From assembly GCA_003599195.1 (NCBI GenBank), contig QZIZ01000131.1, positions 1 through 33,563 on the forward strand: DNA of 33,563 nucleotides. The letters are read 5' to 3'. The first letter of the stretch is position 1, and each line of letters begins with the position of its first letter. This document shows positions 1,678 through 32,508 of the stretch, one piece after another. This DNA is from Deltaproteobacteria bacterium (GTDB lineage: Bacteria > Desulfobacterota > Desulfobaccia > Desulfobaccales > 0-14-0-80-60-11). Position numbers and translations under genes: made by a program. Under the pieces are notes generated by a model. The model saw nothing but the letters and a program-made list of their open reading frames with translations, ran no database searches and was not told the DNA's origin.

Positions 1678-1708
1678 TAACTCGTAACTCGTAACTCGTA
1701 ACCCGTAA
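1678..1708. repeat. Heptamer tandem array (CTCGTAA)n before mqnA
   Basis: Four units with a 7-bp period are visible: CTCGTAA at 1681, 1688 and 1695, and CCCGTAA at 1702, with a partial unit before them. The array fills most of the 66-nt gap between the deaminase gene and mqnA and ends about 20 nt before the mqnA start. A CAGGAG ribosome binding site (1718-1723) lies between the array and ATG 1729. Confidence 0.9.
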
Positions 1709-1728
1709 CTCTTCTAACAGGAGCAACC

Positions 1729-2556
1729 ATGGCCGCTAAAGTACGTCTAGGCCGGATTCAATATCTCAACGTCCTGCCCATTTATTTTGCCCTGGAAAAT
1801 CTCTTCGGGGAGAACGGCTTTGAGCTGGTCTCCGGCACCCCCGCGGACCTGAATGCCGCCTTGTGCCGGGGCCGGGTGGATCTGGGCTCCATCTCGGCCA
1901 TGGAGTACGGCCGCGGCTCGCAGGATTATCTGCTGCTGCCCGATCTTTCCATCAGTTCCCGGGGACCGGTGGGAAGTGTCCTCCTCTTCAGCCGGGTCCC
2001 CCCGGCTAAACTGCACGGCCGCCCCCTCCTGGTGAGCGCCCATTCCGCCAGCGGGGCCGCGCTTCTTAAAGTCTTGATGTCCGAGCTTTACGGCGTTCAA
2101 CCCGTCTACCGCCAGGGGCCGGTGGCGGAGGCCGCGTCCGCGGCAGATTCCGGGGTCCTGGCCATCGGCGACGAGGCTTTGCAATTGCAGCTCCAGGGGA
2201 GTTGGAACTATGTTTTGGACCTGGGCGCGGCCTGGCAGGAGTGGATCGGCCTGCCCTTTGTCTTCGGGGTCTGGGCCGTGCGCCGGGATTATGCCGCGGC
2301 CTGGCCCGAGAAGACCGCGGCCATGCACTATCTCCTGCTGCGCTCCCGGGACTGGGGGATCAAGGCCTTGCCGGAACTCAGCCGCCTGGCTGCGGCCCAC
2401 CTGGGCCGCCCGGCCCCGGAACTGCTCTCCTATTTCCAGCAACTGGATTATTCCCTGACCCCGGAACATGAAAAAGGCTTACAGATCTTCTTTAATCTTT
2501 TGTATAAACAGGGAGAACTTGCCGAAGTGCCGCCCTTAACCTATTTTCAGGAGTGA
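1729..2556 (+). CDS. mqnA: Chorismate dehydratase MqnA
   Basis: The product is a 275-residue protein of the MqnA family, which has a periplasmic-binding-protein fold and is cytoplasmic. MqnA dehydrates chorismate to 3-enolpyruvylbenzoate, the first committed step of the futalosine menaquinone pathway. Recognisable segments are the N-terminal RLGRIQYLNVLPIYFAL, the AALCRGRVDLGSISAMEYG stretch and LSISSRGPVGSVLLFS. The length is normal for the family, with no signal peptide, as expected for a cytoplasmic enzyme. ATG 1729 follows a CAGGAG ribosome binding site at 6-nt spacing. It belongs to the same strand group as the deaminase upstream and the UbiD/UbiX pair downstream, although heptamer arrays separate it from both. 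Confidence in the family is high. Confidence 0.93.
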   Translation: MAAKVRLGRIQYLNVLPIYFALENLFGENGFELVSGTPADLNAALCRGRVDLGSISAMEYGRGSQDYLLLPDLSISSRGPVGSVLLFSRVPPAKLHGRPLLVSAHSASGAALLKVLMSELYGVQPVYRQGPVAEAASAADSGVLAIGDEALQLQLQGSWNYVLDLGAAWQEWIGLPFVFGVWAVRRDYAAAWPEKTAAMHYLLLRSRDWGIKALPELSRLAAAHLGRPAPELLSYFQQLDYSLTPEHEKGLQIFFNLLYKQGELAEVPPLTYFQE

Positions 2557-2585
2557 AGGGCTGATGGAGGAGAAGACGTAAAATA

Positions 2586-2662
2586 ATCAGTGATCAGTCA
2601 TCAGTGAACAGTAATCAGTTGTTTTTCTGGCTACTGGCCACTGATTACTGATCGCTGATCAC
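2586..2662. repeat. Two facing heptamer arrays forming an inverted repeat before the ubiD-type gene
   Basis: The first array has five 7-bp units related to ATCAGTG (2586-2620). The second has five units related to CTGATCA (2627-2661). The two arrays are approximate reverse complements, so a transcript could fold into a stem of about 30 bp with mismatches and a loop around GTTTTTCTGG. No U-tract follows, so it is not a classical terminator. It lies 35 nt before the ubiD-type start. Confidence 0.88.
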
Positions 2663-2696
2663 TCTCTCAATCTCTTTCCTCAATAAGGATATTCAC

Positions 2697-4142
2697 ATGG
2701 GATACCGCCACTTGCAAGACTTCATCCGCCGCCTGGACCAGGCCGGGGAACTGGTGCGCATCAAGGAGCCGGTGAGCCCTTACCTGGAGATTACCGAGAT
2801 CACCGACCGGGTCTGCAAGGCCGGAGGGCCTGCCCTTCTTTTCGAGCAGGTCCCGGGTTACGACCTGCCGGTCTTGATGAACGCCTTCGGCTCCATGAAG
2901 CGCATGTGCCTGGCTTTGGAGGTGAACTCCCTGGACGATATTGCTGCGGAGCTTCTCTCCTTCATGGAGGCTGAGGCCAACACCTTGATGAAGAAACTGC
3001 AGCTCCTTCCCAAGCTGGCGCGGCTGGGCCGTATGTTTCCCAAGACCGTATCCCGGGCCCCCTGCCAGGAAGTGGTTTTTACCGGCGAGCAGGTCAACCT
3101 CAGGAGTCTGCCGGTTCTCCACTGCTGGCCCGAAGACGGCGGTCCCTTCATCACCCTGCCCGGGGTCATCAGCCATCATCCGGAGACCGGCAAGCGCAAT
3201 GTGGGCATGTACCGCCTCCAGGTCTACGACGCCCGCACCACCGGCATGCACTGGCACCGGCACAAAGGCGGCGCCCAGCACTACCGGGTGGCTTCGGCCA
3301 GGGGGGAAAACCTGCCGGTGGCGGTGTCCATCGGCGCCGATCCCGCGGTAATTTACGCGGGCACCGCGCCTTTGCCGGAAGACATCGACGAAATCATCTT
3401 CGCCGGTTTTTTACGGGGGGAGCCGGTGGAGATGGTCAACTGCCTCACCCAGCCGGTGATGGTCCCCGCGGAGAGCCAGATCGTCCTGGAAGGCTACGTG
3501 GCCCCGGGTGAGCTGCGCCGGGAAGGCCCCTTCGGCGATCATACCGGCTACTATTCCCTGGCCGACGACTACCCTGTGTTTCACGTCACCGCCCTGACGC
3601 GGCGCCGGGACGCGGTCTATCCCGCCACCATCGTGGGGCGGCCTCCCATGGAGGATTGCTTCATCGCCAAGGCCACGGAGCGCATCTTTCTGCCCTTGAT
3701 GAAAAAGACACTGCCGGAGATCGTGGATCTCAACCTGCCGGTGGAAGGGGTCTTCCATAACCTGGCCTTCGTCAGCATCGACAAACGCTATCCCGGCCAT
3801 GCCCGCAAGGTGATGCACGCCCTCTGGGGCCTGGGGCAGATGATGTTCACCAAGATCATCATTGTTTTCGACCGGGAAGTGGATGTCCAGGATATTAGTC
3901 AGGTCCTCTGGCGCCTGGGAAACAACGTGGACCCGAAGCGGGATATAGTCTTTGCCGAGGGGCCGGTGGACGTGTTGGACCACGCCTCGCCGCTGCCCCA
4001 TTACGGCTCCAAGATGGGCATCGACGCCACCCGCAAGGGACCGGAGGAAGGCTTCACCCGGGAATGGCCCCCGGTCATCGACATGGACCCGGAAGTCAAA
4101 CGCAGGGTGGACGAGCTGTGGCCGAAGCTGGGACTGCCATGA
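2697..4142 (+). CDS. mqnL: UbiD-family prenylated-FMN decarboxylase (menaquinone, MqnL type)
   Basis: The product is a 481-residue UbiD family decarboxylase, close in length to E. coli UbiD. These enzymes use prenylated FMN to decarboxylate aromatic acids. In futalosine-pathway genomes a UbiD-type enzyme is thought to remove the carboxyl group of the prenylated 1,4-dihydroxy-6-naphthoate. Seen in the sequence are the N-terminal MGYRHLQDFIRRLDQAGEL, the cofactor segment NVGMYRLQVYD...MHWHRHKGGAQHY, and the acidic active-site stretch ELRREGPFGDHTGYYS. The C-terminal segment FAEGPVDVLDHASP is also typical. ATG 2697 follows an AAGGA-like site. The stop overlaps the ubiX-type start as ATGA, so the decarboxylase and its cofactor enzyme are translationally coupled. 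The name mqnL is given from context; ubiD is the family name. Confidence 0.9.
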   Translation: MGYRHLQDFIRRLDQAGELVRIKEPVSPYLEITEITDRVCKAGGPALLFEQVPGYDLPVLMNAFGSMKRMCLALEVNSLDDIAAELLSFMEAEANTLMKKLQLLPKLARLGRMFPKTVSRAPCQEVVFTGEQVNLRSLPVLHCWPEDGGPFITLPGVISHHPETGKRNVGMYRLQVYDARTTGMHWHRHKGGAQHYRVASARGENLPVAVSIGADPAVIYAGTAPLPEDIDEIIFAGFLRGEPVEMVNCLTQPVMVPAESQIVLEGYVAPGELRREGPFGDHTGYYSLADDYPVFHVTALTRRRDAVYPATIVGRPPMEDCFIAKATERIFLPLMKKTLPEIVDLNLPVEGVFHNLAFVSIDKRYPGHARKVMHALWGLGQMMFTKIIIVFDREVDVQDISQVLWRLGNNVDPKRDIVFAEGPVDVLDHASPLPHYGSKMGIDATRKGPEEGFTREWPPVIDMDPEVKRRVDELWPKLGLP

Positions 4143-4705
4143 ACCGCTACGTGGTGGCCGTCACCGGGGCCTCCGGCATGATCTACGCCCGGGAGCTGTG
4201 CCGTTATTTTGCGGCCCGGCCGGACCTGGAGCTGCATGCGGTAATTTCCTCCGCCGGGGAGCAGGTGCTCTCCCTGGAATTGGGGCTGACCCCCGGGGAT
4301 CTGGCGCCCCACGCCATCTGGCACCGGGTGGATGATTTCACCTCTTCCCTGGCCAGCGGCTCGTTCCGGGCCCGGGCCATGGTGGTGATTCCCTGCACCA
4401 TGGGCACTATGGGAGCCATCGCCCAGGGGGTGGGCCGCAACCTGATCCACCGGGCCGGAGAAGTCTGCTTGAAAGAGAAGCGGCCCCTGATCCTGGTGGT
4501 CCGGGAAACTCCCTTTAGTCTCATCCACCTTAAGAACCTGACCCGGGCCGCGGCTGCAGGGGCCACCATCTTCCCGGCGTGCCCCGGGTTCTACCACCGC
4601 CCCCAAACTCTGGAAGAGTTGGCCCGGCAACTGGTGGGCCGTATCCTGGACCACCTGGGTCTGGAGCATCGGCTGGGGCCGCGTTGGGGAGAAAAGAATG
4701 ATTAA
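4139..4705 (+). CDS. ubiX: UbiX-family flavin prenyltransferase
   Basis: The product is a 188-residue UbiX/Pad1 family protein. It transfers a dimethylallyl group to reduced FMN to make prenylated FMN, the cofactor of UbiD enzymes. The N-terminal flavin-binding VAVTGASGMIYARELCRYF, the ISSAGEQV segment, the central VVIPCTMGTMGAIAQGVGRNLIHRAGEV segment and the REKP-like LVVRETPFSLIHLKNL are all visible. ATG 4139 overlaps the UbiD stop (ATGA), which fixes the start; the frame is open upstream but inside the ubiD-type gene. The function in this place is to supply cofactor to the neighbouring decarboxylase for menaquinone synthesis. Confidence 0.93.
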   Translation: MNRYVVAVTGASGMIYARELCRYFAARPDLELHAVISSAGEQVLSLELGLTPGDLAPHAIWHRVDDFTSSLASGSFRARAMVVIPCTMGTMGAIAQGVGRNLIHRAGEVCLKEKRPLILVVRETPFSLIHLKNLTRAAAAGATIFPACPGFYHRPQTLEELARQLVGRILDHLGLEHRLGPRWGEKND

Positions 4706-4742
4706 CCGCAGAGGCGCAGAGGACCGCGGAGATACGCAGAGA
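4705..4742. repeat. Dispersed CCGCAGAG-type repeat, single arm
   Basis: The stretch ACCGCAGAGGCGCAGAGGAC and its continuation resemble the second arm of the repeat at 14613-14674 (ACCGCAGAGTCACAGAGGAC). It directly follows the ubiX stop codon. Confidence 0.6.
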
Positions 4743-4807
4743 AATTTTTATTTATGGGCTCGGCTGCGCCGGGACTAGATGTAAGGCATATTGATCAACA
4801 GACCAAA

Positions 4808-4844
4808 AAAGGCAGCCGCACTGTCGGCGCGGCTGCCTTTTGGT
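4808..4844. terminator. Probable bidirectional intrinsic terminator
   Basis: Perfect 9-bp arms GGCAGCCGC (4811-4819) and GCGGCTGCC (4829-4837) are flanked by an A-run on the left and a T-run on the right. The element sits between the convergent ubiX and di-heme peroxidase genes, so it can stop both transcripts. Confidence 0.88.
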
Positions 4845-4859
4845 TAATGGATTAACAGC

Positions 4860-7016
4860 TTATCGAGGTTCGAAGGGATCCCGGTTCAGGAAGAGAGCGA
4901 TGGCATCCGGATTCCCTGCTGCGCCCACCGGCGGGTGGATGTAAAACGGCTTGACCGGTTCCACAATCGTCGCATTGATATTGGTTGTGGAATTTTGCCG
5001 CAAGAACTTGTTCCTGGCGGTATCGGTGGCCCCTTGGACGTTGGGAGCCGCGCCGGTCTGGGGAATAAACAGTTCCGGGTGGTCAAAGGGAGCGCGTTCG
5101 AAAACCACTCTCTCATCAGTCAGACCCCGGACCAGGAAAGCAATCAGGTCATCCATATTGGTCTGGCCAGCGGGCAGCACGAACTCCGGAATGGCAGCGA
5201 TGTCCGCATCCAGGAAGGGCCGGTTCGTGGCCGGGAAGTTGCCGCCCCGGGTGTAGAACTCGATGGCCTGGCGCAGGGTGGAGTCGCCGCCGTCATGGAA
5301 GTAGGGGCCGGTGAAGGGCAGGTTGCGCAGGCTGGCGGCCTTGAACGCCCCCTGGACAACCTTCCGTTCGATGATGGGAGGTTGTAAACCGAAGTTCACC
5401 GGATTCCCGGCTTCGTCGAACGCGTTGTTGGGCACGAATTTGCCCACATCATTCGGCAACTGATTGTTCCTCTTCATGAAAAACAGTTCCGTGTAGGACA
5501 GCGGCAGCCCGTTGGGGAAGCCCTGCGTGGGAGGCGCATTGCCGCCCCGGCCGATATCCTCCTCGGTGGGCCGCCGGGAAATGTTGTACATGCCATTGTC
5601 ATAAAAGCCGGCTTGGCCGTCACCCAGAACCATTAATTCGACGATGTCCTGGGGAATGCCCCGGGAGTCCGCGCCCACGTTACGGAAGGAGTGGTTGGTG
5701 GTCTCCGGCAGCCGGTGGCAATTGTTGCAGCGGCCTTCAACGATGAAGAGGTCCAGCCCCCGGCGGGGGTTGCCCCTTTCCCCGGGAAGGGGATTCAGAT
5801 CGGGGGGATTCGGGTCCCCCTGGTTTCTTTTGGTCATAAAGCGGTCGAAGGGAGTGTCGTCGGCAATCAGGGTCTTCTCATATTCCTGAACCGCCAGCCC
5901 GAAGAACAGGGCGAAGTTCGTCTCCATCAAGGTGAAGCCGTTGATCAGCGTGTTGCTCGGGTCCTTCCAATATGCCTGTTTGAAGGCCTTTTGGATCAGT
6001 TTCAGGTAGGTGGTTTTCAGACCGGGTAAAGGATCCCGTGAGAGCGGACCCAGCAGGCTGTCCGTGGTCGACACTTTCTGGTAACCCAGGGGCCGCAAGC
6101 CCAGCATTTTTTTGCCGAGAGCCGGAAAGCTGCGGCCGCGCCAGGACATCTCGAATTCACTCAGGGGCGGTCCCACCGCCTGGGAGGCCAGGCTGCTGTT
6201 GGGGATGCGGATGAGTTGCTGCTGCAAGACTCCGCCCACGTTTCTCCAGACCATCGAGGTCCGGTCCCGGAAACCGAAGGGATTGACGCCGTTAAAGATG
6301 GCGCTGGCCCGGCCGTCCCAGAAGTTGTCGAAGTTGAACGCGGCGTTGATCGCAGTGGGAGCGTTTCTGGGCTCCACCCGGCGGATGCCGGTAAACCCCG
6401 GGATGGGATCGGGGGTGATGACCGTGCCCAGGTCCACCGGCCCGTCGATTCCCTGGAATTGAGTCAGGACCACGCCCATGGAACTGAAGACGTCATTGGT
6501 GTCCTTCTTGAGGGTCTCCAACTCGTTGGCAGGATCATTCTGGTCCACCGGAGCGGTGCGCGGGCTCCGTAAATGGAAGGGGAAGTCGGGCGAGGCGGCG
6601 CTGAAGTCCGGGGCGAAATTGGGATGCCCGGGCACCCCCTCGAAGTTGTTCCCGAAAATGACGTCTCCTGCGAGAGTAGCGGGGTTGAGCATGTTGCGGC
6701 GGCGGATGTCGGCGCCCGCGTTCCAGTGGCAGGAGGCGCAGGCCTGGATGCCGTCGGAACCCACCTGCATGTCCCAGAAGAGGGCCTTGCCCAATTGTTT
6801 CAGGGCATTGAAGTCCCTGACAAACTGGCCGATGTTGGCGGGGACGATGAGGGGGACGTCCTTAAGCGACAGTGGGTCAATAATATCGATGGGGTTCGCC
6901 GGTTCGGGAGGCTCAACCTGAGCCTTGATTGGCGCCGGCATCATGATCAAACCGGCCAGGACCGGCAACAGCAGCCACCGGCTGAATTGACCTCGGGCGA
7001 ATTTTTTCATCACCAT
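4860..7016 (-). CDS. Exported di-heme cytochrome c peroxidase / MauG family protein, long form
   Basis: The product is a 718-residue c-type cytochrome with two CxxCH heme motifs, CASCH at residues 93-97 and CNNCH at 430-434. The N-terminus has a basic start and a hydrophobic segment (WLLLPVLAGLIMMP) ending near KAQ, a Sec signal peptide. The C-terminal half has peroxidase/MauG-type segments such as GRCNNCHRLPETTNHSFRNVG and KAASLRNLPFTGPYFHDGG. The fold and order match bacterial di-heme peroxidases. The protein is about twice their usual length, however, and its hemes lie about 335 residues apart instead of roughly 145. ATG 7016 was chosen because GGAGG at 7023-7027 lies 6 nt before it; ATG 7010 would be too far away. 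It probably acts in the periplasm, reducing peroxide or oxidising a protein or metal partner. The partner is unknown. Possible co-regulation with the multicopper oxidase gene is discussed in the findings. Confidence 0.85.
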   Translation of the reverse strand: MVMKKFARGQFSRWLLLPVLAGLIMMPAPIKAQVEPPEPANPIDIIDPLSLKDVPLIVPANIGQFVRDFNALKQLGKALFWDMQVGSDGIQACASCHWNAGADIRRRNMLNPATLAGDVIFGNNFEGVPGHPNFAPDFSAASPDFPFHLRSPRTAPVDQNDPANELETLKKDTNDVFSSMGVVLTQFQGIDGPVDLGTVITPDPIPGFTGIRRVEPRNAPTAINAAFNFDNFWDGRASAIFNGVNPFGFRDRTSMVWRNVGGVLQQQLIRIPNSSLASQAVGPPLSEFEMSWRGRSFPALGKKMLGLRPLGYQKVSTTDSLLGPLSRDPLPGLKTTYLKLIQKAFKQAYWKDPSNTLINGFTLMETNFALFFGLAVQEYEKTLIADDTPFDRFMTKRNQGDPNPPDLNPLPGERGNPRRGLDLFIVEGRCNNCHRLPETTNHSFRNVGADSRGIPQDIVELMVLGDGQAGFYDNGMYNISRRPTEEDIGRGGNAPPTQGFPNGLPLSYTELFFMKRNNQLPNDVGKFVPNNAFDEAGNPVNFGLQPPIIERKVVQGAFKAASLRNLPFTGPYFHDGGDSTLRQAIEFYTRGGNFPATNRPFLDADIAAIPEFVLPAGQTNMDDLIAFLVRGLTDERVVFERAPFDHPELFIPQTGAAPNVQGATDTARNKFLRQNSTTNINATIVEPVKPFYIHPPVGAAGNPDAIALFLNRDPFEPR

Positions 7017-7632
7017 GATTTTTCCTCCAAATTAAGAGTTACGGTAATCGGCCAACTCGATTCCCAAATTAAGAATGAAGAAGAGTTGGTAAGATAAGTT
7101 CTGGGCGCTCAAAGGATAACGGGTCGCCTCCTGTTGCGGGATTCCCTTTTGGCAGCTATTTTCAGAGATCAAAGGTCAATGGCCCCGATATCCGACAGAA
7201 ACAATATATAAAGCAAGATCGTGGCTGCGGACTTTATTCCAGGGCGAAGGCATGAGATCGGCAACCGCACAGAGGACAAGGCTTTGGTAGCAAGTATTAC
7301 GGTTCCGGCATTTCATCCCTCCTTCCTTAACAAAATTATTTCAAAGCTTTCATATAAAAATTAGCGATCTTGCTTTGTCGTTACAATAGGCTTAATTACC
7401 TAATTTTAAATAATTATTTTCAAAAGTTACTTTTGTGTTTTTCTTATTATTCAGTGAAATATCTTTAGTAATAGTGGTCTGATTGCCTACCGTAAATAGG
7501 CAAAGATACCTATTTGAGGATACTAATCGCTCTTATTTCGATGCCTGAAAATTTACTGTACTGGACAGGTTAAAATCAGGTTGGCTTGGTTCATTCCGGT
7601 TCTACCCGGATCGAGCGCCTTGGAGGGCTTTT
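7017..7632. other. AT-rich divergent intergenic region
   Basis: No gene is visible in this 616-base gap between the divergent peroxidase and prenyltransferase genes. Base composition drops sharply to AT-rich between about 7320 and 7560. It contains a perfect 12-bp inverted repeat (7210-7221 and 7365-7376), a candidate minus-strand promoter (7358-7386), a local inverted repeat GCCTAC...ATAGGC around 7484-7501, and an ATAGGTAT element in minus orientation near 7505-7513. The leader of the peroxidase gene would be long, more than 300 nt, if the candidate promoter is right. Confidence 0.7.
7358..7386 (-). promoter_or_regulatory. Candidate promoter of the peroxidase gene
   Basis: Read on the minus strand, TTGTAA (7381-7386) and TAATTT (7358-7363) are separated by 17 nt. 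The -35 part is embedded in CCTATTGTAACG, which resembles CCTATTGAACCG before the multicopper oxidase gene, also with a 17-nt spacer. The match to consensus is weak. Confidence 0.35.
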
Positions 7633-8493: not shown

Positions 8494-8529
8494 ATCTTGT
8501 TCTTTTTTCTGCCGAAGATGATTTTATCC

Positions 8530-8559
8530 TTGACAAAAAAAATGCTGAGCGCTTAAAAT
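8530..8559 (+). promoter_or_regulatory. Sigma-70-like promoter of the outer-membrane protein gene
   Basis: A perfect -35 TTGACA (8530-8535) and a -10 TAAAAT (8554-8559) are separated by 18 nt. The predicted transcript would start about 120 nt before ATG 8688. Confidence 0.65.
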
Positions 8560-8687
8560 GGGGTTGCCTTGAAAAGGAGAAAGGATTGGTCTTGAAAATT
8601 CTGGAAAGGAGGGATGGGGGAAACTTAAAACAGGTGTAATTCAAGGCCCAACCAACATTTCTTCAAAGATTAAGGGGGGATAATCTA

Positions 8688-9488: not shown

Positions 9489-9509
9489 GAAGAACTTGTA
9501 GCTCATCCA

Positions 9510-9536
9510 AAGGCGGCCTCTGGGCCGCCTTTTTTA
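9510..9536 (+). terminator. Intrinsic terminator after the outer-membrane protein gene
   Basis: Arms GGCGGCC (9512-9518) and GGCCGCC (9523-9529) enclose a 4-nt loop and are followed by six T residues. Confidence 0.93.
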
Positions 9537-9611
9537 TTGGCGCGGCTCCTTAACCGCCGGGACGCCCTTGTCTCCCCATACCCAATTTGATATGTTGTGG
9601 CGCGAATATTC

Positions 9612-9646
9612 AAAAACTAAAAACTAAAAACTAAAAACTAATAACT
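9612..9646. repeat. Heptamer tandem array (AAAAACT)n before livH
   Basis: Four perfect AAAAACT units and one AATAACT unit are contiguous. The array ends 5 nt before the livH ATG, so the place of a normal Shine-Dalgarno sequence is taken by the repeat. Confidence 0.93.
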
Positions 9647-9651
9647 GCCTT

Positions 9652-11421: not shown

Positions 11422-11463
11422 CGAGATATTATTTCCTCGGATTCCCAAATGAGAGCTTGAACG

Positions 11464-11491
11464 AAAAACGCAAAACGAGACAACAAAACCA
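11464..11491. repeat. Degenerate heptamer array before livF
   Basis: AAAAACG, CAAAACG, AGACAAC and AAAACCA follow one another at 7-bp spacing. Only the first two units are clearly alike, so this is the weakest of the arrays. Confidence 0.4.
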
Positions 11492-13069: not shown

Positions 13070-13162
13070 AGGATCGGTTTCTGGGTTTGGTTTTTGAGTC
13101 TCTTATAAAAATTTTGTCCGATAAGTTTTTTTCTTTATGAGGGAGCGAAGCGACCGAAAAGT

Positions 13163-13200
13163 CCCCTCCCCCTTGAGGGGGGAGGGTTAGGGTGGGGGTG
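13163..13200. repeat. CCCTCCCC-type dispersed palindrome
   Basis: CCCTCCCCC and GGGGGGAGGG form a hairpin around TTGA, followed by TTAGGGTGGGGG. Related elements occur at 26160-26215 and 32331-32410. Confidence 0.65.
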
Positions 13201-13233
13201 GCGTCTTTTGGGGAGCTTTAGGGCCGCACCCGC

Positions 13234-13254
13234 CAAAACGTAAAACGCAAAACG
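13234..13254. repeat. Heptamer array (YAAAACG)3 before the PaaK-like gene
   Basis: Three units CAAAACG, TAAAACG and CAAAACG are contiguous at 7-bp period. The array ends 9 nt before ATG 13264. Confidence 0.75.
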
Positions 13255-13263
13255 GGGCATAAA

Positions 13264-14562: not shown

Positions 14563-14612
14563 GTCTTTCACGATAATCTGCAGGGCGTCATAAATAATTG
14601 CAGATCCTGAAC

Positions 14613-14674
14613 CTCTGCGCTCTCTGCGTCTCTGCGGGAAAAAGAATCACCGCAGAGTCACAGAGGACGCAGAG
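14613..14674. repeat. CTCTGCG / CGCAGAG inverted repeat
   Basis: A 25-nt arm (14613-14637) built of CTCTGCG-like units faces a 25-nt arm (14650-14674) of CGCAGAG-like units. The arms pair at 21 of 25 positions. A single-arm relative lies at 4705-4742. Confidence 0.8.
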
Positions 14675-14916
14675 AATGATCACCTCCTCCAGGAAGAAGA
14701 ACCCCTGGAAACCCGGCGGATGCTGTAAAACTTCCTATAATCGAACTTCCTGTTTTTCCTTTATTCCCCATAGTCATCACCAAACGTAGCCCATAGATTA
14801 ATATTTATTCGACTAAACAAAAAGAAGTATAGGGATAGGTATTTTTACTAGCTCTGTAAAAGATTTTAAAAAGGAATTTCGGCAAATTAAACCCACTATT
14901 TAGGCCTTTTGTCCTA

Positions 14917-21114: not shown

Positions 21115-21141
21115 TTAACAGTAGGTAATTATTGAAAGACC

Positions 21142-21180
21142 AGGTGGCACCGGCGATTAGGGCTGTGCCACCTTTTTTTC
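21142..21180 (+). terminator. Intrinsic terminator after the DAHP synthase fusion gene
   Basis: Arms AGGTGGCAC (21142-21150) and GTGCCACCT (21165-21173) enclose a 14-nt loop and are followed by a T-run. It lies between convergent genes. Confidence 0.88.
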
Positions 21181-21181
21181 C

Positions 21182-21216
21182 GGAAAACGGAAAGGAAAAC
21201 AGAAAACGGTAAACGG
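21182..21216. repeat. Heptamer array related to (AAAACGG)n
   Basis: Five contiguous 7-bp units GGAAAAC, GGAAAGG, AAAACAG, AAAACGG and TAAACGG are present between the terminator and the end of the HD-GYP gene. The units are degenerate but the period holds. Confidence 0.6.
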
Positions 21217-21229
21217 CACTTGCTGCCCT

Positions 21230-23727: not shown

Positions 23728-23790
23728 AAGCTGAACAAGGATAATTTGAGTCTTACTACCGGCAATCCGGGATGAAGGACAGCTTCTTAG

Positions 23791-23829: not shown

Positions 23830-23846
23830 CTGAAAAAGAGTACCTA

Positions 23847-26087: not shown

Positions 26088-26159
26088 TTATTCAGTTCCC
26101 TCTCCTCTCAGGGGTTAATCATTACCCACAAGTTTATATCTCTTGGATATGTCAAGTAT

Positions 26160-26310
26160 TTCCCCTCTCCCCCCGGAGGGTGGGAAGAGGGCAGGGGGAG
26201 GGGGGCGCGAGGACCGCAAATTCGCTGTCCCAAGTAATTATCAATTTCCCCCCTCATTTGTGGATAATAATCCGCCTCTGGGGGGAGAGTGTTCGGTGAG
26301 GGGGGCTGGC
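26160..26310. repeat. CCCTCTCCCC/GGGGAG-type repeat cluster between ftsK and the GGDEF gene
   Basis: The 256-base gap between the convergent ftsK and diguanylate cyclase genes has no gene. It contains CCCCTCTCCCCCC...GGAGGG, GGGCAGGGGGAGGGGGGCGCG and GGGGGGAGAG...GGTGAGGGGGG, recalling the repeats at 13163 and 32331. TAATTATCAATTTCCCCCC and a similar TAATCATTACC stretch also recur in it. Confidence 0.5.
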
Positions 26311-26343
26311 CCTCAATTGCCTTAAGTAAATTTCACTCCCCCG

Positions 26344-28035: not shown

Positions 28036-28208
28036 ATTAGCTGCCTTAATTGATGCAGTAGAAGTTGATACAGACTTATCACTCTTTTATCGGTTTTTGG
28101 GCCGAAGAAATTGAGCACAAATGACTACAAAATTTTTTCCAAAGGAATCTCACTCCCCGTTCCTAAACTCCGCTTCTATTCCCCGTCCCCAACTCCCGCT
28201 CCCGCCCT

Positions 28209-28260
28209 CGTTCCCAAGCTTCGCTTGGGAACGGAAATTTTAGTCCAGGCTCTGCCTGGA
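28209..28260. repeat. Tandem pair of dispersed palindromes
   Basis: CGTTCCCAAGC and GCTTGGGAACG pair perfectly over 11 bp around TTC (28209-28233). TCCAGGC and GCCTGGA pair over 7 bp around TCT (28244-28260). The first type is a common intergenic repeat in many bacteria. Confidence 0.8.
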
Positions 28261-28323
28261 CACCTTTAAAAGGCTTTTGACCGTGGCCATTCTTGGGAAC
28301 ATTGAACTTTTAAATCAAAGGCA

Positions 28324-28357
28324 ATTGTTAACTTCAGTTTTTAATATGGTTGACAAT
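28324..28357 (+). promoter_or_regulatory. BirA-type biotin operator upstream of bioB
   Basis: The inverted repeat ATTGTTAAC (28324-28332) and GTTGACAAT (28349-28357) is separated by 16 nt. This matches the known BirA operator TTGTTAAC-N14-16-GTTWACAA with a single change. A -10-like TAATAT (28342-28347) lies between the half-sites, so bound BirA-biotinyl-AMP would block the promoter. It lies 29 nt before bioB. Confidence 0.88.
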
Positions 28358-28386
28358 GCCCCCTTTTTAAGAGATGCTTTCCAGGT

Positions 28387-29322
28387 ATGCCATCCCTCAG
28401 CCAAAATGAATTTGCGGATATTTTTCACCGGGACTGGGCCGGTATGTGGCCCCTGATGGCGGAGGCCCAGCGTCTCCGGGAGCACCATTTCGGCCGGCAG
28501 GTCAGTTTCTGCGTCATCACCAACGCCAAATCCGGATTATGTTCCGAAGATTGCGCCTTCTGTTCCCAGGCGGCCGGCGCCGGGGGAGATGTGCCTCGCT
28601 ATCCTCTGCTGGCGCAAGAAGACATGGTCGAAGCCGCAACCCGGGCGGCCGCAGCCGGCGCCGCCCGCTTTTCCCTGGTGACTTCCGGCCGGGGCGTCAT
28701 CTCCGGCAAGGAGCAAGAGGCCTTGCTCCAAACGGTGGCCGCCATCGTCGATAAGGTCCCCATTCAGGTCTGCGCCTCCCTTGGGATTGTGGAACCGGGC
28801 TTCCTGAAAGAGCTGAAAGCCGCGGGCGCCTCCCGCTATCATCACAACCTGGAAGCCGCGGCCTCCTTCTTTCCCCAAATCTGCACCACCCACACTTACG
28901 CCGAGCGGGTGGCCACCATTGAGGCGGCCAGGGAAGCGGGGCTTTCCGTGTGCGCCGGAGGCATCCTGGGATTGGGGGAGACCATCGGCCAACGCTGGGA
29001 ACTGGCCCAGGCCCTGAAAGAATTGGCCGTGGACGCCATTCCTCTAAATTTCCTGCACCCCTTGCCCGGCACCGGCCTTTATGGCCGACCCTTGTTGACG
29101 CCTCTGGAGGCCCTGCAAAGCATCGTCGCCTTCCGCCTCCATTTTCCGGACCGGCCGATCATCATCTGCGGCGGCCGCCAGGTGACTCTGCGTTCGCTCA
29201 CGCCCCTGATCTTCGCCGCGGGGGCCAACTGCCTGATGACCGGGGACTATCTGACCACCAAGGGCCGCCTCCCCGAAGAAGACCGGCAGATGCTGGCCGA
29301 CCTGGACCTGAAGCTAGTGTAG
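28387..29322 (+). CDS. bioB: Biotin synthase BioB, variant auxiliary-cluster ligand
   Basis: The product is a 311-residue radical SAM enzyme. The SAM [4Fe-4S] motif is C52-x3-C56-x2-C59 in CSEDCAFC. It inserts sulfur into dethiobiotin, the last step of biotin synthesis. Other family marks are YHHNLEAA, VCAGGILGLGET and NFLHPLPGTGL. Against E. coli BioB the auxiliary-cluster ligands are C129 (for C128), C189 (for C188) and R264 in CGGRQVTLR (for R260). The position of C97, however, is S96 in RFSLVTSGRG. An extra cysteine, C261, lies next to GGR. This places the enzyme with non-canonical BioB proteins that may hold a different auxiliary cluster. It is the first gene after the BirA operator. ATG 28387 has only a weak AGGT site. 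Confidence 0.93.
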   Translation: MPSLSQNEFADIFHRDWAGMWPLMAEAQRLREHHFGRQVSFCVITNAKSGLCSEDCAFCSQAAGAGGDVPRYPLLAQEDMVEAATRAAAAGAARFSLVTSGRGVISGKEQEALLQTVAAIVDKVPIQVCASLGIVEPGFLKELKAAGASRYHHNLEAAASFFPQICTTHTYAERVATIEAAREAGLSVCAGGILGLGETIGQRWELAQALKELAVDAIPLNFLHPLPGTGLYGRPLLTPLEALQSIVAFRLHFPDRPIIICGGRQVTLRSLTPLIFAAGANCLMTGDYLTTKGRLPEEDRQMLADLDLKLV

Positions 29323-29339
29323 GGTGCGTTCCACGCACC
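29323..29339. repeat. Small palindrome GGTGCGT/ACGCACC after bioB
   Basis: Perfect 7-bp arms around TTC begin immediately after the bioB stop codon. No T-run follows, so termination is unlikely. Confidence 0.75.
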
Positions 29340-29347
29340 AAATAAGG

Positions 29348-29395
29348 CAGGGGTCAGGGGCCAGGGGCCAGGGATTAGGGGTAGGGATCAGGACA
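29348..29395. repeat. Heptamer array (CAGGGGC)n between bioB and bioD
   Basis: Units CAGGGGT, CAGGGGC, CAGGGGC, CAGGGAT and TAGGGGT follow in register at 7 bp, then a degenerate AGGGATCAGG. Confidence 0.85.
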
Positions 29396-29448
29396 TTATT
29401 GGCGTTAACTTAGAAATATGACAAGTGGGGGACTTCTGCAGAGATCTC

Positions 29449-29490
29449 AACTTGGAACTCGGAACTCGGAACCTTGAACCTTGAACTTTG
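29449..29490. repeat. Heptamer array (AACTCGG/AACCTTG)n before bioD
   Basis: Six contiguous 7-bp units are present: AACTTGG, AACTCGG twice, AACCTTG twice and AACTTTG. The unit drifts step by step along the array. It ends 10 nt before the bioD start. Confidence 0.92.
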
Positions 29491-29500
29491 ACTAGGACCG

Positions 29501-30277
29501 ATGAACCTCAATCTCCCTGAAATCCCCAAAATTAGAGGGATCTTTATAACCGGCACCGACACCGACGTGGGCAAGACCCTGGTGGCCGCGGGCCTCACCG
29601 CGGCCCTTAGGCAGCGGGGAGTGAAAGCGGGGTATTTCAAACCCGTGCAGAGCGGCTGCCCGGAGGAAAACGGGCGGCTCATTCCCGCCGATGCCAGGCG
29701 GGTCCGGGATCTGGCGGAACTGCCGGAACCTCTGGACCTGCTCACCCCCGTCACCCTGCGGCTGCCCCTGGCCCCGGGCGTGGCCGCGGCCCGGGAAGGG
29801 GTCAAGGTGGACCTGGAAAAGGTGGCCGCAGCTTTCCGGGAACTGTCCTCCCGCTACGATTTCCTGGTGGTGGAGGGCGCGGGCGGCCTTTACGTGCCCC
29901 TGGCCGATACCAATTTCCTGGTCCTGGACCTGGCCCGCTGGCTCAGACTCCCCCTCCTGGTGGTGGCCCGGGCCGGCCTGGGGACCATCAACCACACGGC
30001 CCTCACGGTCCTGGCCGCGCGTCACGCCGGGCTGCCGGTGGCCGGGGTGATACTCAACCGCTGCTCCGCCGCCCCGGGTTTGGCGGAGCAAACCAACCCC
30101 GGGGTGATCGAGGCCCTCACCCGCGTCCCCATCCTGGGAAAGGTCCCGGAAGTCCCCGACGTGGAATCCCCGGAAGGCAGGAATTTTTTTTTCACAGCAA
30201 TGCACGATATCTGTTCTCACGCAGATATTTTTAAAAATATGCAGGAGGGTGGAGCAGGAGTAATCAGTAATCAGTAA
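29501..30277 (+). CDS. bioD: Dethiobiotin synthetase BioD
   Basis: The product has 258 residues. The P-loop is G18TDTDVGKT26 in FITGTDTDVGKTLVAAGL; the FKPVQSG and VVEGAGGLYVPL segments are also characteristic. The enzyme closes the ureido ring of 7,8-diaminopelargonate with ATP and CO2 to give dethiobiotin, the BioB substrate. The core ends near PILGKVPEVPDVESPEG. About 35 further residues (RNFFFTAMHDICSHADIF...) form a tail of unknown role, and the last codons (VISNQ-stop) lie within the AGTAATC heptamer array, so the repeat supplies the stop codon. ATG 29501 is preceded by TAGGA and the AACTCGG array. It follows bioB after a gap filled with repeats. Confidence 0.93.
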   Translation: MNLNLPEIPKIRGIFITGTDTDVGKTLVAAGLTAALRQRGVKAGYFKPVQSGCPEENGRLIPADARRVRDLAELPEPLDLLTPVTLRLPLAPGVAAAREGVKVDLEKVAAAFRELSSRYDFLVVEGAGGLYVPLADTNFLVLDLARWLRLPLLVVARAGLGTINHTALTVLAARHAGLPVAGVILNRCSAAPGLAEQTNPGVIEALTRVPILGKVPEVPDVESPEGRNFFFTAMHDICSHADIFKNMQEGGAGVISNQ

Positions 30278-30355
30278 TCAGTGAATACCAGATAATCCCA
30301 TGGACATCTTCTTTTTTACGGATCACTGATCACTGATTACTGATCACTGGCCATC
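30259..30355. repeat. Facing heptamer arrays between bioD and bioF
   Basis: Array one has AGTAATC three times and AGTGAAT (30259-30286). Array two has GATCACT twice, GATTACT and GATCACT (30321-30348), then a degenerate GGCCATC. The two are approximately inverted relative to each other, as in the pair at 2586-2662. Array one begins inside the bioD coding sequence. Confidence 0.9.
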
Positions 30356-30371
30356 GACTATAAACAAACCT

Positions 30372-31544
30372 ATGCTTCCAGAGCTCACTCAAGAACTGGC
30401 GGCCCTAGAGGCCCAATCCCAGCGCCGCCGCCTCCAGGTGGTGGAAGAGGTTTTGCCCGGCGGTAAGGTGCGGGTGGGGGGCCGGGTGTTGTTAAACCTC
30501 TCCTCCAACGATTACCTGGGACTGGCCCAGGACCCCCGGCTCATCAAGGGGGCCCGGGAAGCCGCGGCCCGCTGGGGCGCGGGAGCCGGGGCCTCCCGCC
30601 TGGTGGTGGGCCATTTGGGGTTGCACGAGGAAGTCGAAACGGAGCTGGCCGCGTTCAAAGGCACGGAGGCCGCGGTCATCTTCTCCACCGGATACATGGC
30701 CAATGTGGGTACGATTGCCGCACTCGCGGGGCCGGGGGACGCCATCTTCAGCGACCGGCTCAACCATGCCAGCATCATGGACGGCATCAAGCTTTCCGGG
30801 GCCGACCTGGAGCGGTTTCCCCACCGGGACCTGAACCGGCTGGAGAAGATGCTCAAGCAGGCTCCGGCGGGCAAAAGGCGTCTCATCATCACCGATTCGG
30901 TCTTTTCGGTGGATGGGGACCTGGCTCCCTTAAAAGAATTGGTGGCATTGAAAGAGCGTTACGCCGCTTGGCTGATGATCGACGAGGCCCACGCCACCGG
31001 CGTTCTGGGTCCCGGAGGCGCGGGCCTGGCCCAGGCCCTGGGCCTGACGGACGCGGTGGACATCCACATGGGCACCTTTTCCAAGGCCCTCGGGTCCCTG
31101 GGGGGCTACGTGGCCGGGGACCAGCGGCTGATTGATTATCTGCACAACCGGGCCCGCTCCTTTATTTACTCCACGGCCCTGCCGCCGCCGGTTCTGGGAG
31201 CCATCGCCGCGGCCCTGGCCGTGGTCCGGGAGGAGCCGGAGCGCAGACATGGTCTCATGGAGAAAGCCGCGCATTTCCGCCAGGGCTTGGATAAAGCGGG
31301 CTTCGACACCCTGGGGAGCGAAACCCAGATCGTGCCCGCGCTGGTGGGAAAAAACGAACCCACCCTCAGATTTGCCGCAGCCTTGCGGGAGAAGGACCTG
31401 ATGGCGGTGGGCTTAAGGCCCCCCACGGTGCCCCCGGGGAAGGCCCGGGTCCGTTTCTCCCTGTCCGCGGCCCACGGAGCCGCGGACTTGAGCCAGGCCC
31501 TGGAGACCATCGTGGCCACGGGCCGGGAGATGGGACTGGTTTGA
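30372..31544 (+). CDS. bioF: 8-amino-7-oxononanoate synthase BioF
   Basis: The product is a 390-residue PLP enzyme of the alpha-oxoamine synthase family. It condenses pimeloyl-ACP (or -CoA) with L-alanine. Visible motifs are NLSSNDYLGLAQDPRL, GAGASRLVVGHLGLHEEVE, FSTGYMANVG, IIDEAHATG-type MIDEAHATGVLGPGG, and the PLP lysine K238 in GTFSKALGSLGGY. Length and start are usual for BioF. The stop overlaps the TTG start of the next gene (TTGA), so the pair is translationally coupled. It continues the bio group. No strong Shine-Dalgarno sequence is seen before ATG 30372. Confidence 0.95.
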   Translation: MLPELTQELAALEAQSQRRRLQVVEEVLPGGKVRVGGRVLLNLSSNDYLGLAQDPRLIKGAREAAARWGAGAGASRLVVGHLGLHEEVETELAAFKGTEAAVIFSTGYMANVGTIAALAGPGDAIFSDRLNHASIMDGIKLSGADLERFPHRDLNRLEKMLKQAPAGKRRLIITDSVFSVDGDLAPLKELVALKERYAAWLMIDEAHATGVLGPGGAGLAQALGLTDAVDIHMGTFSKALGSLGGYVAGDQRLIDYLHNRARSFIYSTALPPPVLGAIAAALAVVREEPERRHGLMEKAAHFRQGLDKAGFDTLGSETQIVPALVGKNEPTLRFAAALREKDLMAVGLRPPTVPPGKARVRFSLSAAHGAADLSQALETIVATGREMGLV

Positions 31545-32248
31545 TAAAGACTATTATATTCCTCCACGGCTGGGGCGCGGACGCGGCTGTCTGGCAAAAG
31601 CAGACCCAGGCTTTCCAGGCGCGGTTTGAGGTGCAGGCCCCCGCCATCTCCACCTGGGACCCGGCTTGGCTGGAGGAGTATCTGAAAAAATTCTCCCTGG
31701 CGGATTGCCTGCTCGTGGGTTGGTCCCTGGGAGGGATGCTGCTGCTGGAGGTTTTGGCCCGGCAATCCGCGGCCGTAGGCGGCCTGGTACTGGCGGGCGC
31801 GGCCCCGGTCTTCTGTTCTCAGGCCGATCATCCTTGGGGCCAGCCACCAGCCGCAGTGCGGGCCATGCGCCGGGCCTTGAAAAGCAACCCCAAGAAGGTG
31901 CTGCAGGATTTTGCCGGGAGCTGTCTGGCCCCCGGGGAAGAAGCTTTTCAAGGTGAGACTGCCGCCTTATTCAGCGGCGGCAACGCCGCGGATTTGGCTA
32001 CTGGCCTTGATTACTTGCTAAATCAAGACCTGCGGCCCCTGCTGCCCCATTTCCCGGCGCCCCCGGTGATCATCCAGGGATCCCAAGACCGCATCGTGCC
32101 GCCGGAGCAGGGCCGTTTTTTGCATGAACACCTCCCCGGCTCCAGCCTGCATCTCCTGAAGGGCGCAGGCCACCTGCCATTTTGGACTAAGGCGGAAAGG
32201 TTCAACGAGATTTTGGAAAAGATTGTGGATAGAGAGCCGGAGAGTTAG
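31541..32248 (+). CDS. bioH: Alpha/beta hydrolase, probable BioH-type pimeloyl-ACP methyl esterase
   Basis: The product is a 235-residue alpha/beta hydrolase. It opens with TIIFLHGWGADAAVW, which forms the oxyanion-hole HGW. The nucleophile is S62 in GWSLGG, the acid is D183 in GSQDRIVPP and the base is H211 in GAGHLPFW. Located between bioF and bioC, it most likely removes the methyl group from pimeloyl-ACP methyl ester, ending the BioC-initiated chain. It is somewhat shorter than E. coli BioH (256). Several unrelated or distantly related esterases (BioG, BioK, BioJ, BioV) fill the same slot in other genomes, so the name is by function. The start is TTG 31541, overlapping the bioF stop by 4 nt; no alternative ATG precedes FLHGW. 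Confidence 0.85.
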   Translation: MIKTIIFLHGWGADAAVWQKQTQAFQARFEVQAPAISTWDPAWLEEYLKKFSLADCLLVGWSLGGMLLLEVLARQSAAVGGLVLAGAAPVFCSQADHPWGQPPAAVRAMRRALKSNPKKVLQDFAGSCLAPGEEAFQGETAALFSGGNAADLATGLDYLLNQDLRPLLPHFPAPPVIIQGSQDRIVPPEQGRFLHEHLPGSSLHLLKGAGHLPFWTKAERFNEILEKIVDREPES

Positions 32249-32307
32249 CGATCAGCGATCAGCTATCACTAGTCGTCGAAAGGTTGCAGTGGCCAGTAGC
32301 CAGTAAA
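32248..32307. repeat. Two short heptamer arrays after the bioH-like gene
   Basis: GCGATCA twice and GCTATCA (32248-32268), then CAGTGGC, CAGTAGC and CAGTAAA (32287-32307), each at 7-bp period. The first array begins with the last base of the bioH-like stop codon. Confidence 0.8.
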
Positions 32308-32330
32308 AACCAAGGCATGCCAAGGATTTA

Positions 32331-32410
32331 CTCCCTCTCCCCCCGCCCCCGGCGGTATCCTTTCGCCCTGCCGCTAACTGGCGGGGGGAGAGGGCTGGGG
32401 TGAGGGGGGA
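32331..32410. repeat. CCCTCTCCCC/GGGGAGAGGGCTGGGGTGAGGG repeat
   Basis: CTCCCTCTCCCCCCGCC and GGCGGGGGGAGAGGG pair over about 15 bp. The loop includes the further palindrome CCGGCGG...CCGCTAACTGGCGG. The tail CTGGGGTGAGGGGGG is typical of this dispersed family. Confidence 0.7.
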
Positions 32411-32487
32411 CTAGGCTTTTCAAGATTTACGGGTGGGCCATAGGCCCATGAGCGATTGCTCTAACTAATCCAGGTTTTTCTCTTTTT

Positions 32488-32508
32488 GCTGAAAGCTGAA
32501 AGCTATTC
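32488..32508. repeat. Short heptamer array (GCTGAAA)2-3 before bioC
   Basis: GCTGAAA, GCTGAAA and GCTATTC follow at 7-bp period. They end 13 nt before ATG 32522. Confidence 0.6.

What the first reader, a model, noticed from the sequence alone, without database searches (positions are those of the whole stretch)
1678..32508. Many unrelated intergenic arrays share one strict 7-bp period
At least ten arrays in this window repeat every 7 bp, yet their units differ: CTCGTAA (1681), ATCAGTG/CTGATCA (2586-2661), AAAAACT (9612), YAAAACG (13234), AAAACGG (21182), CAGGGGC (29348), AACTCGG (29449), AGTAATC/GATCACT (30259-30348), GCGATCA and CAGTAGC (32248-32307), GCTGAAA (32488). Units drift gradually along some arrays. 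The sequence is not conserved, only the length is. Simple slippage would not be expected to prefer 7 bp each time. Heptanucleotide short tandem repeats (STRRs) are known from heterocystous cyanobacteria, where the units are few and conserved. Here a length-measuring mechanism, or selection on spacing, may be at work. Most arrays lie just before start codons.
Basis: partly seen in the sequence, partly recalled or inferred. Interest (0 to 1): 0.75.

Follow-up and report, generated by a model that had tools for sequence, protein, structure and literature searches.

The report
Seven-base repeat arms beside genes
In an uncultured Desulfobacca-like bacterium, gaps between genes are often edged by short stretches of DNA that repeat every seven bases, have a preferred length of 31 bases and mostly face the same way, which looks like the trace of a DNA-building or inserting process rather than a gene switch.

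Summary
The 7-bp arrays are real. In 1.23 Mb (31%) of this Desulfobaccales-like MAG I found 253 period-7 arrays: 235 intergenic, against 50 for period 8, 5 for period 6 and none in Markov controls.

New rules. (1) Handedness: the GT-rich strand runs from the gene edge into the gap (193 of 224), at starts and stops, in every gene orientation. (2) The modal length is 31 bp, four heptads plus three bases. (3) 122 of 232 have an inverted same-family partner in the same gap (25 expected), yet partners are not mirror copies and show no G-U bias. (4) Relatives often lack the array, sometimes with only a 1-22 bp gap.

Heptamer dominance is already published and called unexplained; one Xanthomonas/Nostoc family shares orientation and about four units, related there to G-quadruplexes. 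Only 8 of 253 arrays here could form one. Best reading: arms of inserted or repaired DNA made by repeat-adding synthesis. The agent is unknown, and slippage remains a strong rival.

The parts
1678..1709 (+). AC-type arm before the mqnA-like gene (1729): TAACTCG family, 32 bp
2586..2619 (-). GT-type arm after the stop at 2556: CAGTNAT family, 34 bp (AC strand is minus)
2639..2663 (+). AC-type inverted partner (CACTGAT family) of 2586-2619, before the ubiD-family decarboxylase gene at 2697; 2586-2663 folds as one stem-loop (-42.0 kcal/mol as RNA, no shuffle control)
9612..9646 (+). AC-type arm AAAAACT x5 before the livH-like gene (9652), 35 bp; absent from the same gap in G001, G002, G003 and G004
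11460..11478 (+). weak AACGAAA array inside the called 5' end of the ABC-transporter ATPase gene (11394); in G001, G003, G004 and G005 the gap just before this gene carries GT-type arrays of the same B family
13234..13254 (+). AC-type arm YAAAACG x3 before the paaK-like gene (13264); G002, G003 and G004 have a 1-bp gap here
21181..21216 (+). degenerate AC-type arm (GAAAACGG) between convergent genes
29348..29392 (-). GT-type arm CAGGGGY, after bioB
29449..29491 (+). AC-type arm AACTCGG drifting to GAACCTT/GAACTTT, before bioD (29501)
30259..30282 (-). GT-type arm AGTAATC x3 + AGT, overlapping the called 3' end of bioD
30321..30349 (+). AC-type inverted partner GATCACT before bioF (30372)
32247..32268 (-). 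GT-type arm (AGCGATC) at the stop of the alpha/beta hydrolase gene; not typed by my AC/GT count, orientation read by eye
32287..32305 (-). GT-type array CAGTAGC, second array in the same gap
32488..32504 (+). AC-type arm GCTGAAA before the bioC-like gene (32522)

Best explanation
The arrays are the outward-facing arms of DNA added between genes. Shown: an arm is a run of heptads with a modal length of 31 bp (3 + 4x7); in most arms the GT-rich strand reads 5'->3' from the gene edge into the gap, so the two ends of a gap tend to carry inverted arms, often of one unit family. Inferred: arms arise in a short burst of reiterative, microhomology-primed synthesis that extends 3' ends from a gene edge into a break or gap (a 3-nt anchor, then about four 7-nt steps), followed by joining, sometimes with other DNA between, and later by unit drift and small gains or losses. 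Gene function and translation are not the target; arrays persist between genes because insertions inside genes are removed by selection. The polymerase and the origin of the unit sequences are unknown.
For: Handedness: 193 of 224 typed arrays with a gene on both sides have the GT strand running inward (5 untyped arrays and 6 without a gene on one side left out), in all four gene-orientation classes; it holds for 56 of 62 arrays that are alone in their gap and without a detectable partner. Inverted same-family partners: 122 of 232 at score 14 against 25.0 expected from other array-bearing gaps; 37 of 68 adjacent pairs against a permuted mean of 13.1 and maximum of 20. Arms are independent, not mirror copies: identity 0.915 within 37 pairs and 0.915 in 307 cross-locus same-family comparisons. 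Length: 42 arrays of 31 bp and 33 of 32 bp out of 253, while 28, 29 and 30 bp have 11, 11 and 8. The series from 31 to 37 bp is 42, 33, 15, 9, 7, 5, 1, as expected for a true length of 31 with chance extension; a random-cut control gave a much flatter residue spread. Inner ends carry TTTT on the AC strand in 72 of 230, against 8.3% background. Insertion: at window 2557-2696 the gap is 140 bp here but 3 and 22 bp in G005 and G002; at 13070-13263 it is 194 bp here and 1 bp in G002, G003 and G004. Arrays per gap are similar for the four gene orientations (++, --, +-, -+): 94 over 317, 92 over 267, 23 over 76, 23 over 88 (array counts, gap counts). Stem mismatches in codirectional gaps are 20 G-U, 23 A-C and 31 other, so there is no sign of selection on an RNA stem.
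Against: No enzyme was found: no reverse transcriptase (RVT_1) match in array-bearing G007, G008, G010, G013 and G018, no Ku match in G002, G004 and G005. 110 of 232 arrays have no inverted partner at score 14, 31 of 224 break the handedness rule, 178 of 253 arrays are not 31-32 bp long, and 158 of 230 have no inner TTTT. Equal triplets at both ends of 31-bp arrays (39 of 42) follow largely from period and length and are not independent evidence. Per base, divergent gaps have fewer arrays than codirectional ones (23 over 36.7 kb, against 186 over 155.7 kb). At one junction (29323-29500) all four relatives compared have arrays, so some arrays are old and drift in place. Adjacent identical units are more frequent than in shuffles (229 of 603 against 201.5, sd 7.9), which points to some unit-by-unit duplication. 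Family D units have a position-specific order, which looks like copying. No birth event was observed, and a shorter gap in a relative could in some cases be a deletion. In other lineages the handedness is weaker, 24 obeying and 10 not.
Confidence: 0.38

Rival explanations
1. Replication slippage with a polymerase-set preference for 7 bp (the proposal attributed to Mrazek et al. 2007): arrays arise in place from chance sequence and grow or shrink one heptad at a time, tolerated only between genes.
For: Published proposal as reported in PMC4679880 and PMC4692102. Period 7 also leads in stretches of other families of the phylum (46 arrays in 6 of 11 chosen genomes). Orthologous arrays differ in length and unit. 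Excess of identical neighbouring units (229 of 603 against 201.5).
Against: Does not predict handedness (193 of 224), few unit families, same-family inverted partners or a sharp 31-bp peak in place of a falling length series. No position-specific order of unit variants was seen in four of five families.
Confidence: 0.3
2. Mobile palindromic elements (REP/REPIN- or MITE-like): the pair of heptad arms with its loop moves as a unit into gene gaps, and single arms are decayed copies.
For: Presence/absence between relatives; hairpin geometry and handedness; Y1_Tnp matches, many weak, in 23 of 29 genomes of the order; other palindromic families are dispersed in gene gaps of this genome, including an octamer-armed hairpin; family D has a position-specific order.
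Against: Spacers are not a shared family: with arrays masked, 53 of 164 array gaps (32%) have any BLAST hit, against 206 of 748 (28%) of all gaps. No sign of copies of a master arm in families A, B, C and C2. Spacers of the 37 good pairs run from 4 to 737 bp. G010 has 56 GAACTTT matches and no Y1_Tnp match.
Confidence: 0.17
3. Selected structures: the arrays act as regulators, as G-quadruplexes, RNA stem-loops, terminators or translation signals.
For: Placement close to gene ends; G-rich members such as CAGGGGY; the two window pairs fold into long stems (-42.0 and -34.7 kcal/mol, no shuffle control); fewer arrays per base in divergent gaps; published functional suggestions (PMC4679880, PMC4692102).
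Against: Starts and stops alike and all gene orientations alike in handedness; 8 of 253 arrays could form a G-quadruplex; no G-U over A-C preference (20 against 23); T-runs lie inside the stem-loop, not after it (TTTT inner 72, outer 24 of 230); arrays missing in many relatives; no Rfam match at gathering score in the window.
Confidence: 0.1
4. A telomerase-like reverse transcriptase (as in DRT10) adds the heptads from RNA templates to broken 3' ends.
For: A triplet anchor plus whole heptads, with the GT-rich strand as the extended 3' strand, is what template-translocating addition would leave (inference); a bacterial RT making tandem-repeat DNA has been described (PMC12632851, abstract).
Against: No RVT_1 match in several array-bearing genomes, including G010 (100% complete) and G007 and G008 (99%); five or more unit families would need as many templates.
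Confidence: 0.05

Closest known systems
GGGNATC heptamer repeats of Xanthomonas and Nostoc (Rehm et al. 2015, PMC4692102; abstract and sections 3, 10, 13, 14, 16 read)
   Same: Intergenic heptads; G-rich strand after stops on the coding strand and before starts on the non-coding strand; preference for four units; convergent inverted pairs (70 cases in Xcc); close to gene ends; length and sequence variation between relatives.
   Different: One G-rich unit type there, discussed in terms of G-quadruplexes; here about five families, with 8 of 253 arrays able to form a quadruplex, and neither GGGAATC x2 nor GGGGAYT x2 in the 1.23-Mb sample. In Xcc/Xac 83% of repeats are kept in the same gene context; here 12 of 30 relative gaps compared have an array.
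TAACTGA direct repeats of marine Beggiatoaceae (MacGregor 2015, PMC4679880; abstract and sections 3 and 7 read)
   Same: Intergenic heptads next to gene ends; ACTGATA on the coding strand before starts resembles family A here (ACTGATC/T).
   Different: There one unit, 147 of 170 sets toward a start codon and 12 toward stops, one inverted repeat; here many units, starts and stops alike, many inverted pairs; TAACTGA x2 occurs 0 times in 1.23 Mb.
Heptanucleotide long simple sequence repeats (Mrazek et al. 2007, known to me through PMC4679880 and PMC4692102) and intergenic heptamers in 7006 prokaryote genomes (PMC6344855, passages read)
   Same: Period 7 as the commonest repeat class between genes.
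   Different: The passages I read report abundance and no handedness or fixed 31-bp length.
STRRs of heterocystous cyanobacteria
   Same: Heptanucleotide tandem repeats between genes.
   Different: Few conserved units (recalled; no call tested cyanobacterial genomes).
REP/REPIN elements with RAYT transposases (recalled; PMC3116915 seen only in a search listing)
   Same: Intergenic palindromic units; weak Y1_Tnp matches are present in this genome.
   Different: Arms here have no fixed sequence and arms of a pair are not copies of each other.

Membership tests
Intergenic heptanucleotide repeat class (Mrazek; SPADE survey) | Period 7 dominates tandem repeats between genes | tested here: met
   235 intergenic at period 7, 50 at 8, 5 or fewer at each other period below 14
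GGGNATC repeats (Rehm et al.) | Unit GGGNATC / GGGGAYT | tested here: not met
   0 tandem doubles of GGGAATC or GGGGAYT in 1.23 Mb
GGGNATC repeats (Rehm et al.) | Potential to form a G-quadruplex | tested here: not met
   8 of 253 arrays have four runs of three G on either strand
GGGNATC repeats (Rehm et al.) | G-rich strand after stops / antisense before starts | tested here: met
   193 of 224 for the GT-rich strand
GGGNATC repeats (Rehm et al.) | Preference for about four units | tested here: met
   peak at 31-32 bp, 75 of 253; 72 of the 245 arrays that cannot form a quadruplex
GGGNATC repeats (Rehm et al.) | Convergent inverted pairs | tested here: met
   122 of 232 with inverted partner against 25.0 expected
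TAACTGA repeats (MacGregor) | Unit TAACTGA in tandem | tested here: not met
   0 in 1.23 Mb
TAACTGA repeats (MacGregor) | Mostly before start codons | tested here: not met
   107 nearer starts, 125 nearer stops
REP/REPIN | Arms of one conserved sequence (recalled) | tested here: not met
   within-pair identity equals cross-locus identity; no position-specific variant order in four of five families
REP/REPIN | Y1 (RAYT) transposase in the genome (recalled) | tested here: inconclusive
   three weak matches in G000; none in G010, which has GAACTTT arrays
Phase-variable SSR | Copy number varies among strains | not testable with these tools
   one genome per species is held
Telomerase-like addition (DRT10) | Reverse transcriptase gene present in array-bearing genomes | tested here: not met
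   no RVT_1 match in G007, G008, G010, G013, G018

The most novel reading that the evidence does not exclude
Many bacteria carry an undescribed DNA end-building activity that heals or fills breaks between genes by adding, to each 3' end, a 3-nt-anchored run of about four heptads (31 bp) from a small set of degenerate units, often followed by a short A-run, before joining. The outward-facing heptad arms seen in many genomes would be its scars, and its step size and processivity would explain why 7 is the commonest repeat period between bacterial genes.
Probability: 0.12. Interest if true: 0.9.

Novelty: new variant of a known kind. Interest (0 to 1): 0.6.

Why it matters
The excess of 7-bp repeats between bacterial genes has been reported since 2007 (as told in PMC4679880), and the 2018 survey of 7006 prokaryote genomes says there is no clear clue to the function of this prime-number periodicity (PMC6344855, passage). 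The rules found here (inward GT strand at both gene ends, a preferred 31-bp length, same-family but non-mirrored partners, small or array-free gaps in relatives) limit the possible causes. They argue against start-codon regulation and against quadruplex formation as the general reason for four units, and they can be checked in any complete genome. If the arms are products of one end-extension or insertion process, that process would be a widespread and unrecognised source of new intergenic DNA.

Tried and rejected
Rejected or weakened: (1) chance (Markov controls). (2) Start-codon or ribosome signal: stops equally affected. (3) Intrinsic terminators: T-runs are on the inner side. (4) RNA stem under selection: 20 G-U against 23 A-C mismatches. 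(5) G-quadruplex: 8 of 253. (6) Mirror-copied (snap-back) hairpins: arms no more alike within than between loci. (7) One mobile family with a shared loop: BLAST hits in 53 of 164 array gaps against 206 of 748 of all gaps. (8) Ku, RVT_1 or Y1_Tnp as a required gene: each without a match in some array-bearing genome, with the caveat that MAGs are incomplete. (9) Cross-phylum sharing of the CAACYCG unit: one Omnitrophota contig showed a similar short run, but its genome has 1 match against 1 in the reversed control, so I dropped it. (10) BLAST of TAACTGA repeats against plasmids to reach cyanobacterial records: no match; the tool's low-complexity filter is on.

Limits: gene calls come from my own codon-score caller; it puts 18 arrays inside genes, some at gene ends such as window 30259. 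The sample is 31% of one MAG (81% complete). Array types were assigned by AC/GT dinucleotide counts. Family labels come from my motif list; family E (CCCCTG) is undercounted because words such as CTGGCC were credited to A. In the comparison of other lineages I chose 11 genomes mostly for high GAACTTT counts; arrays were found in 6 of them (46 arrays, 12 of 31-32 bp). Of these 46, 34 entered the handedness count (24 obeying, 10 not); the other 12 were inside ORFs, untyped or without an ORF on one side. ORFs there were taken longest first. The GAACTTT pattern also matches its reversed control in some genomes, more than the pattern itself in G073.

Literature: eight searches of open-licence PMC papers only. 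In them I did not find a report of heptad arrays in Desulfobaccales, of a 31-bp length, or of this orientation across several unit families; subscription journals are not covered. Seen: PMC4692102 and PMC4679880 (abstracts and named sections), PMC6344855 (passages), PMC12632851 (abstract and outline), PMC4060949 and PMC12699852 (term look-ups only, no use made). Mrazek 2007, the cyanobacterial STRR papers and RAYT papers were not read.
Full report
What was checked. The window is contig 27 of a 3.92-Mb, 179-contig, 81% complete assembly. By record titles its nearest named relatives are Desulfobacca, Desulfobaccales, Deltaproteobacteria and Syntrophales MAGs. Genes around the arrays are ordinary: menaquinone biosynthesis decarboxylase (TIGR03701), bioB, bioD and bioF match above their cut-offs; LivH-, PaaK- and BioC-like genes match below theirs; the MqnA-like gene has no NCBIfam match and is named by my own recognition.

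Period. I took 60 further stretches, with the window 1,232,396 bp, and called 1,115 genes with a codon-score caller. Intergenic arrays at score >=12: period 7, 235; period 14, 119; period 8, 50; period 21, 30; period 6, 5; each other period below 14, at most 3. Coding arrays: 18 at period 7, 15 at period 6. Five runs of order-2 Markov intergenic DNA gave none at period 7. The octamers (CTTTGCGT and CCTTTTCC types) do not overlap the heptads, so they are a second class.

Units. Written with the AC-rich strand, the units fall into families: A ACTGATC/ACTGGCC (101 arrays), B ACYGAAA/ACGGAAA/ACTAAAA (67), C GAACYTT/AACTTGG (40), C2 AACYCGY (13), D GCTGANA (16), E CCCCTG (2, undercounted in favour of A), other 14 (labels from a motif list of mine). 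Family A has 542 near-matches in the whole genome and 0 in the reversed control. The distribution is patchy: G014, another genus of the family, has 246 family A matches, while for example G010, G016 and G024 have none. The GAACTTT unit matches in 56 of 148 genomes across the phylum, some of which also match the reversed control. The C2 unit has 79 matches here and none in G014 and G024. So units are shared within a lineage and by some distant ones, but not generally.

Handedness. Among 224 typed intergenic arrays with genes on both sides, 98 are AC-type next to the right gene and 95 GT-type next to the left gene; 17 and 14 break the rule. The rule holds in ++, --, +- and -+ gaps. Put differently, the GT-rich strand runs from the gene into the gap, whether the gene end is a start (98 of 105) or a stop (99 of 122), and for 56 of 62 solitary arrays without a partner. 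Starts and stops behave as mirror images, which points to DNA geometry, not to a message for ribosomes (inference).

Length. Arrays peak at 31 bp (42) and 32 bp (33) of 253, with 11, 11 and 8 at 28, 29 and 30 bp. From 31 to 37 bp the counts fall 42, 33, 15, 9, 7, 5, 1, which is what a true length of 31 bp extended by chance matches would give; cutting the same arrays at random and re-detecting them gave a much flatter spread of residues modulo 7. In stretches of relatives 20 of 69 arrays are 31-32 bp, and in other lineages 12 of 46. Of 42 arrays of exactly 31 bp, 39 begin and end with the same triplet, though this largely follows from a period of 7 and a length of 31. Octamers do not share this length; they peak at 24 bp.

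Pairs. 122 of 232 arrays have an inverted partner of the same family in their gap (score >=14); 25.0 would be expected from other array-bearing gaps, and 33 have a direct partner. Of 68 neighbouring array pairs 37 are inverted and alike, against a permuted mean of 13.1 and maximum of 20. Yet the two arms of a pair are no more alike (0.915) than arms of one family at different loci (0.915), and mismatches in codirectional gaps are 20 G-U, 23 A-C and 31 other. Hence the arms were probably not made by copying each other and are not held in register by RNA selection. Variant order along an array is not position-specific in families A, B, C and C2 but is in D; neighbouring units are identical more often than in shuffles (229 of 603 against 201.5, sd 7.9).

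Flanks. On the AC strand the inner side is T-rich (TTTT in 72 of 230, AAAA in 24, background 8.3% each), the outer side G-poor with TTTT in 24. Terminator T-runs would lie on the outer side. Repeated spacers are little commoner in gaps with arrays (53 of 164) than in all gaps (206 of 748).

Relatives. At seven window junctions I could compare 30 relative gaps: 12 have an array of any family at the lower threshold (score 9), 18 do not; for an eighth junction (21115-21229) no relative gap was recovered. Examples: of five genomes with the gap upstream of the livH-like gene only this one has an array; between the mqnA-like and ubiD-family genes this genome has a 140-bp gap with a hairpin, G005 a 3-bp gap, G003 a 222-bp gap with other units; at 13070-13263 three relatives have a 1-bp gap and G001 has arrays of the same family; at 29323-29500 all four relatives have arrays, with changed units and lengths. 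So arrays come and go within the genus, and old ones drift.

Other lineages. In 20 stretches (358,156 bp) of 11 genomes chosen mostly for many GAACTTT matches, period 7 again leads (46; next 6 at period 9, and 22 at the multiple 14). The arrays come from 6 of the 11 genomes, in four families; handedness was obeyed by 24 and broken by 10 (kinship). Other units appear there (ATTAAAC, ACCTATG, AACTCAA).

Candidate agents. In 29 genomes of the order RVT_1, Y1_Tnp and Ku each have no match in some array-bearing genome, so none is a clear requirement.

Reading. Period-7 excess between genes is known (PMC6344855, passages; PMC4679880 and PMC4692102, named sections). Rehm et al. already describe orientation, four units, convergent pairs and nearness to gene ends for one G-rich unit type, and note that four units is the minimum for a quadruplex; they say a functional role remains to be elucidated. 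Here a like architecture holds for units that cannot form quadruplexes (245 of 253 arrays), so the architecture probably has another cause. Whole heptads on a 3-nt remainder, inward GT strand, same family but independent arms, and small or array-free gaps in relatives fit reiterative extension of 3' ends into a gap or break, or an insertion process that ends in such arms. Slippage in place remains the main rival and may act afterwards. The mechanism is inferred; no birth event and no enzyme has been shown.

Noticed in passing
1.23-Mb sample of G000, e.g. L019 18126-18198, L025 8845-8925, L158 17619-17700: A separate class of octamer arrays (ACGCAAAG/CTTTGCGT and GGGGAAAA/CCTTTTCC), in places as inverted pairs; 51 arrays.
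   Followed up: partly
G000 intergenic regions: A dispersed hairpin of about 80 bp with CACAGAG...CTCTGTG outer arms and an inner stem that differs on both sides between copies (e.g. GGCGGGTTCCCCGCC, GGCGCCGGGTGCC), as if the stem and not its sequence were kept; not tested.
   Followed up: no
window 29323-29342 and gaps of relatives: Other short palindromes such as GGTGCGTTCCACGCACC, GTAGGGCGGGCGTCCCCGCCCGCC and GCACAGGCTGGAAAGCCTGTGC sit in the same gaps; some begin with GTAG, recalled as typical of RAYT-linked REPs.
   Followed up: no
29 genomes of the order: Several divergent Y1_Tnp matches per genome in many of the order, in frames of often 180-200 aa and weak to PF01797; possibly RAYTs.
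   Followed up: no
window 14579-14690: CTCTGCG / CGCAGAG inverted octamer-like repeat between the paaK-like and multicopper oxidase genes; many G005 contigs match this stretch.
   Followed up: no
window 29323-29500 and orthologues: All four relatives compared have heptad arrays in the bioB-bioD gap although units and lengths changed; a good site for dating turnover.
   Followed up: partly
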